NCBI RefSeq assembly: GCF_024178165.1
Contig: NZ_JAMZIE010000004.1
Coordinates: forward strand, 124,001-188,000
Origin: Halohasta salina
GTDB taxonomy: Archaea; Halobacteriota; Halobacteria; Halobacteriales; Haloferacaceae
Direction of reading: 5' to 3'
DNA length: 64,000 nucleotides
Part shown: one piece after another, positions 9,968-56,958 of the stretch
Layout of the letters: every line of letters begins with the position of its first letter
How positions within the stretch are numbered: the stretch's first letter is position 1
Position numbers and translations under genes: made by a program
Notes under the pieces: generated by a model
Databases searched by the model: none
Seen by the model: only the letters and a program-made list of their open reading frames with translations
Told to the model about the DNA's origin: nothing

Positions 9968-10056
9968 GACGCGTCGTTACTCGTCGACTACCGTCGGCCG
10001 ATCCACTGAAAGTTGAAAAGACGCGTTGTTAGTCGTCGGCTACTGTCGGCGTATCC
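9968..10056. repeat. Imperfect 37-base direct repeat spanning the purU 3' end
   Basis: Copy A (9968-10004) and copy B (10020-10056) agree at 31 of 37 positions by hand alignment. Copy B includes the last codons and stop of purU; copy A lies in the gap between the two convergent stops. This looks like a decayed local duplication of the purU tail. Confidence 0.65.
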
Positions 10057-10997
10057 CGTTTTTCGATGCCACCGTCGACCGGTTCGTTCGGATTGGCTTC
10101 TTGGGCTGCCTCGGAGAGCCCGAGTTGGTAGTCGGTGGGGTCGGCCTCGTCCCGGAGGCTCGTCCGGCCGCGGTGGACTGAGACGGCGTCGTCGAGATGC
10201 ATTTCGACCGCCTCGATCAGCGCCTCGGCTTCGAGCGGCTGGCCGCGGGCCTTGATCTCGTCGATCAGGGCGTCGTCCGGCACGTCGAAGGCCCGCTGGG
10301 TGATGATGGGGCCCTGATCGAGGTCGGTCGTCACGTAGTGGGCGGTGACGCCCGCGATCCGGACGCCCTCCTCCTTGGCTTGGCGGTAGGCCGCCGCGCC
10401 GGGGAACGCCGGCAGGAGGCTCGGGTGGATGTTGATGATACGGTCCTCGTAGCGGAAGACGATCTTCGGGCCGAGGATCCGCATGTAGCGCGCAAGGACG
10501 ATGAGGTCGACGTCGTGTTCGGTCAGGATGTCGAGCATCCGGTCCTCGTCGGGCGACCCCTTGCCGTCGCCGACGTCGTAGAACGGAACGTCGTGGGCTT
10601 CGGCGAGTTCGCGGAGCGTCCCGCGGTTGCTGATGATCGCCGAGATCTCGACGTCGAGTTCGCCCGACGCTTGGGCCTCCAGAAGGGCCTCCAAACAGTG
10701 GGACTCCTTGGTGACACAGACGGCGATCCGCCGGGTCTCCCGATCGCTGGGGAACCGGACCTGAATCTCGACGCCGAGTTCGCGGCCCAGCTCGGAGAGG
10801 GCCTCCCGGAGTTCGTCCGGGTCGGTCTCCATCTCACTGGTGTCGACACGCATCGACATCCGGAACAGGCCGTCGCGGACCGCCTGATCGAGGTCTTCGA
10901 TGTTGATTCCGCGCTCGAACAACAGCGTCGTGACTCTCGCGATGAGTCCGGTCTTGTCGCCTCCGATAACCGTGATTTCGGTGAGTTCGGTCGTCAT
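10029..10997 (-). CDS. purU: Formyltetrahydrofolate deformylase
   Basis: PurU hydrolyses 10-formyl-THF to formate and THF, supplying formate for purine synthesis and balancing one-carbon pools. The 322-residue protein has an ACT-like N-terminal domain (residues about 5-80), then the formyltransferase fold with INIHPSLLPAFPGAAAY and VTTDLDQGPIITQ. It has a charged extension of about 40 residues at the C-terminus. A Shine-Dalgarno-like GGAGGTG lies 5 bases upstream of the ATG, inside a 12-codon mini-ORF whose stop overlaps the purU ATG. Confidence 0.9.
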   Translation of the reverse strand: MTTELTEITVIGGDKTGLIARVTTLLFERGINIEDLDQAVRDGLFRMSMRVDTSEMETDPDELREALSELGRELGVEIQVRFPSDRETRRIAVCVTKESHCLEALLEAQASGELDVEISAIISNRGTLRELAEAHDVPFYDVGDGKGSPDEDRMLDILTEHDVDLIVLARYMRILGPKIVFRYEDRIINIHPSLLPAFPGAAAYRQAKEEGVRIAGVTAHYVTTDLDQGPIITQRAFDVPDDALIDEIKARGQPLEAEALIEAVEMHLDDAVSVHRGRTSLRDEADPTDYQLGLSEAAQEANPNEPVDGGIEKRDTPTVADD

Positions 10998-11032
10998 ACC
11001 GACACCTCCGGGCCGCTGTCGAGTGCGGTCAT
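10994..11032 (-). other. Twelve-codon leader mini-ORF overlapping the purU start
   Basis: On the minus strand, ATG at 11032 opens a frame encoding MTALDSGPEVSV whose TGA overlaps the purU ATG (ATGA). The TATA-like ACGTTTTTGAC (11055-11065) is centred 28 bases before this ATG, so the mini-ORF sits at the expected leaderless start. The layout is the same as at cetZ (4313) and the METTL5-like gene (23830). Confidence 0.45.
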
Positions 11033-22599: not shown

Positions 22600-23553
22600 T
22601 TATCTAAACCCCATTGCCTCGATCTGCTCCTGATAGCGGTTGCGGATCGTCACCTCGGTCACCTGTGCGACGTCGGCGACCTCGCGTTGGGTCTTCTTCT
22701 CGTTGCAGAGCAGCGAGGCCGCGTAGATCGCCGCCGCGGCGAAGCCGGTCGGCGACTTCCCGGAGAGCAGTCCCTGTTCGGCCGAGACGTCGATGATCTC
22801 GGTGGCTTTGGCCTGTACCTCCTCGCTGAGGCCGAGCGACGAGGCGAACCGCGGCACGAACTGTTTGGGGTCGACCGGCCGAAGTTCGAGGCCGAGTTCC
22901 TGAGAGATGTACCGATACGTCCGGCCGATCTCCTTCTGTGGAACCCGCGATACCTCCGCGACCTCGTCGAGGCTCCGCGGGATGCCTTCCTGTCGACAGG
23001 CCGCATACAGCGCCGCCGTAGCGACGCCCTCGATCGAGCGCCCCCGGATCAGGTCCTCGTTGAGCGCCCGCCGATAAATGACTGAGGCGACCTCCCGGAC
23101 CGACCGGGGGACGCCCAGCGCCGAGGCCATCCGGTCGATCTCGCTGAGTGCGAACTGGAGGTTGCGCTCGCCGGCGTCCTTCGTGCGGATGCGCTCCTGC
23201 CACTTCCGAAGGCGATGCATTTGGCTCCGCTTTTCGGATGACAGCGACCGACCATAGGCGTCTTTGTCCTTCCAGTCGATAGTCGTCGTCAGCCCCCGGT
23301 CGTGCATCGTCTCGGTGATCGGTGCGCCGACACGGGACTTGTTCTGGCGTTCGGAGTGGTTGAACGCCCGCCACTCCGGACCGCGGTCGATCTGTCGCTC
23401 GTCGAGCACCAGCCCACAGTCGTCACACACCAACTCACCCTGATCGGCGTCGGTGACGATCTCGTCCGAACCGCACTCGGGACACTCTAGGGTCTCGTCC
23501 GACTGCTGTTCCGATTCTCGCTCCTGTTGGCGCTGCCTGCTCGGACGTTCCAT
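22600..23553 (-). CDS. tfb: Transcription initiation factor B (TFB)
   Basis: TFB binds the TBP-promoter complex and recruits archaeal RNA polymerase. The 317-residue protein has an N-terminal zinc ribbon ([18 protein letters not shown]), the B-finger ([13 protein letters not shown]), and two cyclin-like repeats ([46 protein letters not shown]). Haloarchaea carry several TFB copies with different promoter preferences. I chose ATG 23553 because CTTTTAAATG is about 30 bases upstream. The longer frame to 23616 would start before that box. Confidence 0.96.
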
Positions 23554-23829
23554 TATAAGGTTTGTGGTTCGGCCTTCATTTAAAAGTTTTTGAAACAAAA
23601 CAGACTTGTTACTCAATGTTAACTTTTGATGTTCGGCAAAAAACCGTGCTTAGAGCACCTTCTAACGCCGATTTCGGCACTTGATTGGTAGCAGTCGACC
23701 GGCGTCGGCGACCAGTATGGAGTCGAACGGCCGACAGGTCCGTCGGCACTGATACCGCGGTAGTATACGTGGGGAAACCCCCGGCGGAGTGGCTGCAACA
23801 CTTTTGACTCGGGGGCCGGTAGGAGGGGT
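23554..23829. other. Divergent promoter region of tfb and the METTL5-like gene
   Basis: On the minus strand, CTTTTAAATG near 23580-23590 serves tfb. On the plus strand, ACTTTTGAC at 23800-23808 serves the METTL5-like transcript. The sequence between is AT-rich near tfb and GC-rich later; I saw no gene in it. Confidence 0.5.
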
Positions 23830-23880
23830 ATGAACGCCGGACGCACGACCGGCCAGCGGTGGCCGGTCGGGGGGTGGTGA
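23830..23880 (+). other. Sixteen-codon leader mini-ORF with internal hairpin before the METTL5-like gene
   Basis: ATG at 23830 lies 26 bases from the centre of the TATA-like ACTTTTGAC, the leaderless position, and encodes MNAGRTTGQRWPVGGW. Its TGA (23878-23880) ends one base before the methylase ATG at 23882. Inside it, CGACCGGCCA (23846-23855) pairs with TGGCCGGTCG (23860-23869) around a 4-base loop. GGTGAG just before 23882 could act as a ribosome-binding site. Confidence 0.45.
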
Positions 23881-23881
23881 G

Positions 23882-24505
23882 ATGCCGAGCAAGCGTGAAC
23901 TCGAAGGCCAACTGGCGGTGGTCGCGGGGTTCGAGAACCCACGGGCATCGCTCGAACAGTACCCAACCCCGCCGGGGCTGGCGGCCCACGTGATCCATCT
24001 GGCCGACCTGCAGGGAGACATCGAGGGGCGGACGATCGTCGACCTCGGGGCCGGAACGGGGATGTTCGCTCTCGGGGCGGCCCTCCGGGGCCCCCAGCGG
24101 GTGGTCGGCGTCGAGATCGACGGCGAACCGCTCCGAACGGCCGTCGAGAACCGCCGCCGGGTGGGAACCACCACACCCGTTCACTGGATCCAAGCCGACG
24201 CCACCCGGCCACCGCTCTCGCTGACCGAACCGTCGACGGTCGTGATGAACCCCCCGTTTGGCGCCCAGAACGGGCAGTCCGGCGCCGACAAGAGGTTCCT
24301 GCGGACGGCCGCCGAGATCGCCGACGTCTCTTACTCGGTCCACAACGCCGGTAGCGAGGCGTTCATCGATGCCTTCGCCGCCGACAACGGCGGCGAGGTG
24401 ACACACGCCTTCGCCGCTGGCTTCGAGATGCCCCGGCAGTTCGACCACCACACCGACGACCGCCGCGACGTCGACACCGAGGTCTACCGGATCGAGTGGC
24501 AGTAA
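23882..24505 (+). CDS. METTL5-family RNA adenine methylase
   Basis: The 207-residue protein has LEQYPTPPGLA at the N-terminus, the SAM loop DLGAGTGMFALGAAL (residues about 54-68), and the N6-adenine catalytic motif NPPFGAQNG (about 123-131). Archaeal members are close to eukaryotic METTL5, which methylates small-subunit rRNA. The rRNA target is inference from the family. The C-terminus (TEVYRIEWQ) is compact; length fits the family. It is preceded by a mini-ORF with a strong hairpin. Confidence 0.88.
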   Translation: MPSKRELEGQLAVVAGFENPRASLEQYPTPPGLAAHVIHLADLQGDIEGRTIVDLGAGTGMFALGAALRGPQRVVGVEIDGEPLRTAVENRRRVGTTTPVHWIQADATRPPLSLTEPSTVVMNPPFGAQNGQSGADKRFLRTAAEIADVSYSVHNAGSEAFIDAFAADNGGEVTHAFAAGFEMPRQFDHHTDDRRDVDTEVYRIEWQ

Positions 24506-55693: not shown

Positions 55694-56734
55694 TCAGTCG
55701 TCAGTCCGCTGTGGGGTCGACAGCGGCGCGGTCGGCGAGGGGGTTGACGGCGGCGGTGTCGGATGCCAGTCTTCGACCAGCGGGAACTGAGCGGTACGAG
55801 TCGCGCCGACGGCCGCCTGTGCGCGGTCGATATCGGTGCCGTCGAGGCGGGCGCTGTAGGCGGCCATCGACTCGCTCGGCGAGGCCGTCGACACGTAGCG
55901 CACGGTCGTCCCGCGGCTGTCGATGTCGACGACGAGATACGCCTGCGGGAACGTACAGATCGACGGCGCGGTAACCTCGGTCACGGTGTGAGTGGAGGTC
56001 TCGCGGGCGGCAACACCGGGGAGGTGGATGTGGCCGGTGAGCGCCAGCGGGACGCCGGCCCCGGCCAGCGTCTCCATGGCCGCCTCGCCGTTACGCATGA
56101 TCGGCACGGCCGACATGTCGACGCCGGTCGCAGCACCGGAGTTCGCGGCCTGTCGTGCCGTCGGCGGCAGCGTGTGGTGGGTGAAGACGACCGGACAGTC
56201 GGCGGTCTCGGCGCGGTCGGCCAGCCAGTCCAACTGCCTCGGCGTCACCCGCCCGTCGTGGCTCTCGCGCAGGTCGCCGTCGGGTGTCCACGCGCTGTCG
56301 AGGCCGAGGAGGTCGACGCCGCCGACTCCCACCTGATACGGGAGTTTCCCGGGCGTGTAGCGGTCGATGAAGCGACCGCGGGAGGCCGACCGATGGGCGT
56401 CGAACGTTTTGGGGACGTCGTGGTTACCGGGGACCGCGAAAAACGGGGCGTCGAGGTCGGACAGCAGGTCGTCAACACGAGCAAAGTCCCACGGCGCGCC
56501 GTCCTTGGTGAGGTCGCCGACCGAGACGACCGCGTCGACGTCGCGGCTGTTGATGTCGGTAATCGCTGTTTCCAGAAAGCCTTCGGTTCGCTCGAACTGC
56601 TTCGGCGAGCCGTCGGCCCGCGTCGAGACGTGGGGATCGGCGAGCACCGCGAGCCGCGTGGGACGGCTGGTGGTAGGGGCAGCGAGTCGCGCCATGACGG
56701 TGCTTCCGGCGTTCCGAAGCGGTCGACCACTCAT
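55694..56734 (-). CDS. Calcineurin-like metallophosphoesterase
   Basis: The 346-residue protein has the metal-binding order D-x-H (LADPHV), GDxxxxG (VSVGDLTKDG), GNHD (VPGNHDVPK), VFTHH and GHIHLPG, all of the calcineurin-like phosphoesterase core. The substrate (nucleotide, phosphoester or lipid) is unknown. CTTTAGGTT about 30 bases upstream fits ATG 56734; the later Met at 56695 is an alternative. It converges on the coiled-coil gene. Confidence 0.9.
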   Translation of the reverse strand: MSGRPLRNAGSTVMARLAAPTTSRPTRLAVLADPHVSTRADGSPKQFERTEGFLETAITDINSRDVDAVVSVGDLTKDGAPWDFARVDDLLSDLDAPFFAVPGNHDVPKTFDAHRSASRGRFIDRYTPGKLPYQVGVGGVDLLGLDSAWTPDGDLRESHDGRVTPRQLDWLADRAETADCPVVFTHHTLPPTARQAANSGAATGVDMSAVPIMRNGEAAMETLAGAGVPLALTGHIHLPGVAARETSTHTVTEVTAPSICTFPQAYLVVDIDSRGTTVRYVSTASPSESMAAYSARLDGTDIDRAQAAVGATRTAQFPLVEDWHPTPPPSTPSPTAPLSTPQRTDD

Positions 56735-56958
56735 TAGATACAGGTCGGATCCGGGAACCTAAAGCCGTATCTAGGAGCCATACACCTGCCTGTAGAGACC
56801 TATATAGCCGTTGGGGCGCTGTAGCTGCCGTTTGGCCCGGAGTCAGCAACTGGGACGAACGGGAACGCACTGGGGTGCTATCGGTTACCACCGGTTCCAC
56901 AGCGGGGGTCATCCGTCGACTACGGCTATTTCGGTAGCGAGCCACTGGGACAGTGATC
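56735..56958. other. Divergent region between the phosphoesterase and HdeD-like genes
   Basis: It holds the phosphoesterase promoter at the left end, a TATA-like CCTATATAGCC near 56799-56809, and CGGCTATTTCGG before the plus-strand gene. I see no further gene. Confidence 0.4.

What the first reader, a model, noticed from the sequence alone, without database searches (positions are those of the whole stretch)
23800..23882. Mini-ORF with a ten-pair hairpin just before the METTL5-like gene
Seen: ACTTTTGAC, then 26 bases later an ATG opening 16 codons, a perfect 10-base stem with a 4-base loop inside the frame (23846-23869), a TGA, and the methylase ATG one base further. A translating ribosome would melt the stem; a stalled one would leave it, so it could act like an attenuator or a feedback site for an RNA-modifying enzyme (inference).
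Basis: partly seen in the sequence, partly recalled or inferred. Interest (0 to 1): 0.58.

Follow-up and report, generated by a model that had tools for sequence, protein, structure and literature searches.

The report
Leaderless mini-ORF that feeds METTL5 translation
A tiny reading frame at the very start of a salt-loving archaeon's message seems to exist only to hand ribosomes to the rRNA-methylase gene behind it, and related species that lost a real gene from this spot have repeatedly kept such a stub, whereas the hairpin that was first noticed is not conserved.

Summary
The hairpin is not conserved: 10, 4, 7 and 4 bp in the four species of the genus, no covariation, mean folding z 0.06 over 51 mini-ORFs. 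The mini-ORF is conserved. Most Haloferacaceae carry a ~133-aa gene whose stop abuts the METTL5 start; 56 of 170 genomes, this one included, lack that gene. In 45 of 54 assessable ones a leaderless-type ATG opens a short ORF that stops within -11..+5 nt of METTL5 (0.46 expected from shuffles; controls 1 of 97 and 0 of 99). Peptides diverge equally at all codon positions, while the start, the stop-start junction and, except in young stubs, a strong Shine-Dalgarno motif persist. The METTL5 tree needs at least 10 changes of this state; two Halorubrum stubs are internal deletions of the lost gene. Best reading: a leaderless ribosome-delivery ORF that keeps METTL5 translated by termination-reinitiation, like mycobacterial coupled small ORFs; my searches found no archaeal example. 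No transcript or translation data were available. Attenuation or feedback is not supported.

The parts
23800..23808 (+). TATA-like promoter element ACTTTTGAC; TTTT begins 28 nt before the mini-ORF ATG, the leaderless distance
   Evidence: sequence; TTTT begins 28 nt before the mini-ORF ATG in G000, G001 and G003 (in G002 28 nt before its first ATG) and 29 in g13
23830..23880 (+). 16-codon mini-ORF with TGA stop; inferred leaderless ribosome-delivery ORF
   Evidence: same architecture in 45 of 54 gene-less genomes, 0.46 expected; no peptide-level selection
23869..23878 (+). Shine-Dalgarno-like GGGGGGTGGT inside the last codons of the mini-ORF, serving the METTL5 start
   Evidence: -15.4 kcal/mol with the anti-SD tail (anti-SD letters recalled); mini class mean -9.9 against -3.1 where the intact gene is upstream
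23878..23884 (+). junction TGA-G-ATG, stop to start distance +1 nt
   Evidence: sequence; relatives have +1, -1, -4, +2 and others
23846..23869 (+). 10-bp perfect hairpin inside the mini-ORF; species-specific, probably without selected function
23882..24505 (+). METTL5-type rRNA adenine-N6 methyltransferase gene, 207 aa
   Evidence: human METTL5 6h2u E 1.1e-27, archaeal PH1948 1wy7 E 5.9e-34, nearly full length; ORF
10994..11032 (-). second example in the window: 12-codon leaderless-type mini-ORF with ATGA overlap before a formyltransferase/ACT gene (10029-10997)
   Evidence: survey hit; kept in 4 of 4 genomes of the genus with GGAGGTG before the start

Best explanation
The mini-ORF is a leaderless ribosome-delivery ORF. 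Transcription from the box at 23800-23808 starts at or within a few bases of 23830, so the mRNA begins with the mini-ORF's AUG and ribosomes load there as on other haloarchaeal leaderless messages (inferred). They translate 16 codons whose sequence does not matter (shown by comparison), terminate at the TGA one base before the METTL5 AUG, and reinitiate there, helped by the Shine-Dalgarno motif in the last mini-ORF codons (inferred from geometry, conservation and published Haloferax reporter work). Ancestrally, most likely, the delivering ORF was a real ~133-aa gene in front of METTL5; it was lost in this lineage and in several others, and what remains or re-forms is a stub just long enough to bring ribosomes to METTL5. 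The hairpin is incidental; an elongating ribosome would open it.
For: Gene loss: the ~133-aa upstream protein matches in 114 of 170 family genomes and in none of the other 56, G000 included. Of those 56, one has no METTL5 match and one has an assembly gap at the start; 45 of the remaining 54 have a TATA word 24-33 nt before an ATG whose ORF (8 codons or more) stops at -11..+5 of METTL5; 0.46 expected from dinucleotide shuffles; 1 of 97 at starts of the intact gene; 0 of 99 at METTL5 starts behind the intact gene. Chosen only by TATA distance, 50 of 55 such ATGs end at the junction. Recurrence: at least 10 changes of the mini state on a 111-row METTL5 tree, 5 forced by starred branches. Peptide neutral: mini-ORF differences at codon positions 1/2/3 are .65/.67/.65 (g1) and .37/.32/.25 (g17), METTL5 .05/.05/.41 and .04/.00/.25. 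SD: mini -9.9, intact -3.1, leaderless -4.3 kcal/mol, Mann-Whitney 9e-11 mini against intact (rows are related, so the p-value is too small). Stubs: L154 and L220 align to the last ~100 nt of the intact gene (72 and 79 against shuffle maxima 41 and 45) and keep its promoter. Literature passages: in H. volcanii 72% of protein-coding transcripts are leaderless (PMC4983044); overlapping pairs are strictly coupled and the SD is not used for de novo initiation (PMC6728339); a native +1 pair is coupled and +22 nt abolishes it (PMC10666635).
Against: No transcript start, ribosome profile or reporter exists for this locus. For the window itself neither the body nor the promoter of the mini-ORF resembles the lost gene above shuffles (32 against a shuffle maximum of 33; 20 against 20), so descent from the lost gene is inferred from other lineages. 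Nine of 54 genomes fail the strict test: three g2 genomes (in two of them METTL5 itself looks leaderless), four low-GC g19 genomes whose candidate mini-ORFs overlap more deeply or lack the box, and two g22 genomes (L178 keeps a 138-codon ORF ending at -4). The four Halorubrum stubs lack a strong SD (-0.7 to -5.2), and two of the g2 genomes have one (-10.4) without a mini-ORF. The tree rests on one 207-aa protein; 47 of its 108 inner branches are open. SD-led initiation on a 52-nt leader is not excluded by sequence alone.
Confidence: 0.8

Rival explanations
1. SD-led de novo initiation: METTL5 is translated from an ordinary 52-nt 5' leader with a strong Shine-Dalgarno motif, and the mini-ORF is a by-product of a G-rich leader and a chance AUG at the mRNA start.
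For: Very strong SD in the window (-15.4 kcal/mol) and in most mini lineages.
Against: Frame, stop placement and leaderless ATG are kept far beyond shuffles (45 of 54 against 0.46). Halorubrum stubs have the ORF but no strong SD. In H. volcanii the SD does not work in 5' UTRs (PMC6728339 passage).
Confidence: 0.12
2. Attenuator or feedback element as first proposed: ribosome progress on the mini-ORF decides whether the hairpin forms and so regulates the RNA-modifying enzyme.
For: A 10-bp stem next to the SD, z -2.54; G001 has a 7-bp stem with the same GACCGGC/GCCGGTC arms.
Against: Longest stem only 4 bp in two of four species, no covariation, no structure excess over 51 mini-ORFs, no conserved codons, no Rfam match.
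Confidence: 0.04
3. The mini-ORF encodes a functional small protein.
For: Haloplanus (g17) mini-ORFs mostly share a start MTPT and a W near the end.
Against: Equal divergence at the three codon positions in g17, g1, g13, g4 and g19; lengths from 14 to 31 codons outside the Halorubrum stubs (strict-test hits); the shared end is the SD (GTGGG, GGCGGTG) read as codons.
Confidence: 0.02
4. Sequencing error or programmed frameshift joins the mini-ORF to METTL5 as an N-terminal extension.
For: The two frames are directly adjacent.
Against: The stop-start distance differs between lineages (+1, -1, -4, +2) while a stop codon stands at the junction; METTL5 aligns to relatives from residue 1 to 3.
Confidence: 0.01

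Closest known systems
Coupled leaderless small ORFs of mycobacteria (Shell et al. 2015, PMC4633059; passages read)
   Same: Leaderless start, 5-50 codons, stop overlapping the start of an annotated gene, peptide not conserved in an example while the linkage is, proposed ribosome delivery
   Different: Archaeal ribosome and promoter; stop-start distances of +1, -1, -4, +2 rather than RTGA only; here the ORF stands where a gene was lost in several lineages and mostly carries a strong SD
Termination-reinitiation at overlapping gene pairs in Haloferax volcanii (Huber et al. 2019 PMC6728339; 2023 PMC10666635; passages and one section read)
   Same: Stop-start distance -4 to +1, SD inside the 3' end of the upstream ORF, haloarchaeon
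   Different: There both ORFs encode proteins; here the upstream ORF is a 16-codon stub with neutral peptide
uORFs in long 5' UTRs of H. volcanii (PMC4983044; passages read)
   Same: 15-31 residue ORFs upstream of genes in a haloarchaeon
   Different: Those were sought in 150-250-nt leaders; the passages read describe no coupling to the downstream start
METTL5 (human 6h2u/6h2v; archaeal PH1948 1wy7)
   Same: Downstream gene is a nearly full-length homologue
   Different: No enzyme activity tested here

Membership tests
Coupled leaderless small ORF (ribosome-delivery ORF) | mRNA starts at the small ORF's AUG | tested here: inconclusive
   TATA word at the leaderless distance in G000 and in 45 of 54 gene-less genomes; no mapped 5' end
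Coupled leaderless small ORF (ribosome-delivery ORF) | stop codon overlaps or abuts the start of the next gene | tested here: met
   TGA-G-ATG, +1 nt; kept in relatives
Coupled leaderless small ORF (ribosome-delivery ORF) | linkage conserved, peptide not | tested here: met
   codon-position divergence
Coupled leaderless small ORF (ribosome-delivery ORF) | small ORF is translated | not testable with these tools
   needs ribosome profiling or a reporter
Termination-reinitiation (translational coupling) | stop-start distance short enough (about -8 to +6 in H. volcanii) | tested here: met
   +1 nt; published range in PMC10666635
Termination-reinitiation (translational coupling) | downstream translation depends on upstream translation | not testable with these tools
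   needs a stop-codon reporter
Ribosome-mediated attenuator / leader peptide | conserved alternative RNA hairpins | tested here: not met
Ribosome-mediated attenuator / leader peptide | conserved regulatory codons or stalling peptide | tested here: not met
METTL5 methyltransferase | sequence homology over the full length | tested here: met
METTL5 methyltransferase | methylates the small-subunit rRNA | not testable with these tools
   no assay

The most novel reading that the evidence does not exclude
Haloarchaea use a general class of leaderless ribosome-delivery stubs: when the first gene of a coupled pair is lost, selection keeps or rebuilds a tiny ORF with neutral peptide because the second gene can only be reached by a terminating ribosome, and an SD is then added in its last codons. 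METTL5 would be the first worked example, with several independent losses; a formyltransferase/ACT gene (4 of 4 species) and a helix-turn-helix gene (4 of 4) in the same genus would be further members.
Probability: 0.5. Interest if true: 0.7.

Novelty: new variant of a known kind. Interest (0 to 1): 0.55.

Why it matters
It is a natural experiment: a real gene is lost, yet the act of translating something in its place is kept, in several lineages. That suggests haloarchaeal ribosomes reach this gene in two ways only, at the very 5' end of the message or by reinitiation, and it makes the question of how archaea start non-leaderless genes directly testable with a small reporter. It also means that a class of tiny archaeal ORFs should be read as delivery devices, not as small proteins.

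Tried and rejected
Hairpin as RNA element: rejected. Functional peptide: rejected. Frameshift or sequencing error: rejected. Promoter directly in front of METTL5 in this genome: no box at the right distance (labels L008 as not leaderless). Origin of this genome's mini-ORF from the lost gene: not shown directly. Name for the lost 133-aa gene: only a weak AP_endonuc_2 match in Pfam, E 0.012, nothing in NCBIfam.

The conditional test (46 of 47 observed, 4.31 expected), like its forerunner (50 of 51, 12.8 expected), is not used as evidence, because its mini-ORFs had been chosen partly by where they end; searches are the fair tests. The promoter weight matrix was poorly aligned and served only as a guide. 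Genome survey (864 kb, 560 first genes of a home-made gene call): 23 mini-ORF hits in 20 genes against 4.2 hits from shuffles, but with the TATA word required at seven other offsets 4 to 11 genes still hit, so roughly half of the 20 may be background; of six hits checked in the genus, the formyltransferase gene and the helix-turn-helix gene were kept in 4 of 4 genomes and four were not kept. The MAFFT alignment A1 misplaces the 5' arms; stem lengths do not depend on it.

Full report
WHAT IS THERE. The window lies in contig C20 of a 3.04-Mb haloarchaeal genome, G000; the nearest named relatives are Haloferacaceae. The downstream gene (23882-24505) is METTL5-like: human METTL5 6h2u E 1.1e-27 and PH1948 (1wy7) 5.9e-34 over nearly the whole length. 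Upstream, divergent, is a TFB gene (22600-23541, minus strand). The mini-ORF runs 23830-23880, and GGGGGGTGGT (23869-23878) in its last codons pairs with the anti-SD tail at -15.4 kcal/mol (anti-SD letters recalled).

RELATIVES. METTL5 was found in 169 of 170 family genomes. I extracted the upstream DNA of 168 of these 169 with G handles (G136 was left out) and of 80 loci with organism names; some are the same contigs. In most of the family METTL5 follows a ~133-aa gene of unknown function whose stop lies at -8..+5 nt of the METTL5 start. A search for that protein matched 114 of 170 genomes and not the other 56 (36 of the 56 are not printed there and were taken as the complement of the 114). 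The 56 are all genomes of g1 (ours, 4), g2 (3), g4 (2), g13 (5), g17 (12), g19 (17), g22 (2), g25 (1), g26 (4) and g27 (1), plus 5 of g21. By equal contig length, g13 includes Halonotius pteroides, g17 Haloplanus ruber, g19 Halobellus rufus, and g21 many Halorubrum.

TEST. Of the 56, G163 has no METTL5 match and L241 (G133) has N at the start; 54 remain. An ATG with TTTT, TTTA or TATA starting 24-33 nt upstream, an ORF of 8 codons or more, and a stop at -11..+5 of METTL5 occur in 45 of 54; dinucleotide shuffles of the upstream 200 nt give 0.46; the same test hits 1 of 97 starts of the intact 133-aa gene and 0 of 99 METTL5 starts behind it. Taking ATGs by TATA distance only, 50 of 55 end at the junction, in 45 of the 47 genomes that have such an ATG. 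Misses: L249, L252, L253 (g2; METTL5 of L252 and L253 looks leaderless itself), L196, L197, L247, L251 (g19, low GC), L178 and L179 (g22). L178 still holds a 138-codon ORF ending at -4 whose N-terminus resembles the lost protein by eye.

WHAT IS UNDER SELECTION. Within genera the three codon positions of the mini-ORF differ about equally (g17 .37/.32/.25; g1 .65/.67/.65; g13 .29/.23/.33; g19 .47/.47/.41; ORFs of equal length only), while METTL5 in the same genera shows strong third-position bias (g17 .04/.00/.25; g1 .05/.05/.41). So the peptide looks neutral. Kept are the leaderless ATG, the reading frame, the junction and, in all genomes of g1, g4, g13, g17, g26, g27 and 12 of 17 g19 genomes, an SD of -8.7 kcal/mol or stronger. 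On the deduplicated set the mini class averages -9.9 (n 32), intact -3.1 (n 44) and METTL5-leaderless -4.3 (n 25). The four assessable Halorubrum stubs have -0.7 to -5.2, so the SD seems to come after the loss (inference from few cases). Against a strict link, two g2 genomes have -10.4 without a mini-ORF.

HISTORY. On a METTL5 tree of 111 rows the mini state needs at least 10 changes, 5 forced by starred branches (one gene, 47 of 108 inner branches open; the count cannot tell gain from loss; I relabelled L116 and L256 as intact by hand before the count). Outside the family, Halorientalis (L077, L088) and L100 have mini-ORFs too. Promoters in front of the mini-ORFs of g17, g4, g27, the four g21 stubs and three of four g26 genomes match promoters of the intact gene above all shuffles (for example 56 against a maximum of 24); bodies of L154 and L220 match the last ~100 nt of the intact gene. 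For g1, and so for the window, neither promoter nor body of G000 matches above shuffles, so its stub is either old and worn or new.

HAIRPIN. In the genus the longest perfect stems are 10, 4, 7 and 4 bp and the z-scores -2.54, 0.68, -0.54, 0.46 (G000, G002, G001, G003). Over 51 mini-ORFs the mean z is 0.06 and the mean longest stem 4.63 against 4.60 in shuffles. Pair counts on the four-species alignment show nothing above shuffles (the alignment is poor in the 5' arm). Rfam at gathering thresholds: no match in the window. The stem is species-specific.

MECHANISM. Shown by comparison: position, frame, stop and mostly SD are kept and the peptide is not. Inferred: transcription start at 23830, leaderless loading, termination-reinitiation. 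Published support, from passages I read: 72% of H. volcanii protein-coding transcripts are leaderless (PMC4983044); at overlapping pairs translation of the second gene depended on the first, and the SD did not support de novo initiation (PMC6728339); a native +1-nt pair is coupled, 13 nt cuts reinitiation by 60% and 22 nt abolishes it (PMC10666635); the last 15 nt of an upstream gene suffice in E. coli (PMC10666635, section read). Delivery by a short ORF is described for mycobacteria (PMC4633059) and reviewed (PMC12548453).

NOVELTY. Searches listed no paper on leaderless delivery ORFs in archaea, as judged from listings and the passages read; most subscription papers are not held. I rate it a new variant of a known kind: the mycobacterial architecture, in an archaeon, standing repeatedly where a gene was lost.

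GENERALITY. In 864 kb (800 kb of the genome plus the window; 560 first genes of a home-made gene call) 20 genes have a leaderless-type mini-ORF ending at -11..+5; the 23 mini-ORF hits compare with 4.2 in shuffles, 14 against 2.2 at -4. With the box at seven other offsets 4 to 11 genes still hit, so about half may be background. Of six hits checked in the genus, a formyltransferase/ACT gene (window 10029-10997) and a helix-turn-helix gene (C11:258383-259087) keep the arrangement in 4 of 4 genomes; four others do not.

Noticed in passing
window 10994-11032 (-) before gene 10029-10997 (-): A 12-codon leaderless-type mini-ORF (MTALDSGPEVSV) overlaps the start of a formyltransferase/ACT-domain gene by ATGA and is kept in 4 of 4 genomes of the genus, with GGAGGTG before the start.
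   Followed up: yes
G000 C11:258383-259087 (-), L328-L331: A helix-turn-helix gene is preceded in 4 of 4 genomes by a mini-ORF of 5 to 9 codons with NTGA overlap and a TTTTG box just under 30 nt upstream.
   Followed up: partly
L023-L043 and others, directly upstream of METTL5: A conserved ~133-aa haloarchaeal protein of unknown function precedes METTL5 and is found in 114 of 170 family genomes, with no match in the other 56; only a weak AP_endonuc_2 match. Its link to METTL5 is unexplained.
   Followed up: partly
L178 (G156) upstream of METTL5: The 133-aa gene looks frameshifted, yet a 138-codon ORF still runs from a leaderless-type start to -4 nt of METTL5.
   Followed up: no
window 56734-56781 (-) before gene 55694-56734 (-): A 15-codon mini-ORF before a metallophosphatase gene is not kept in the two relatives checked, a likely background hit.
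   Followed up: yes
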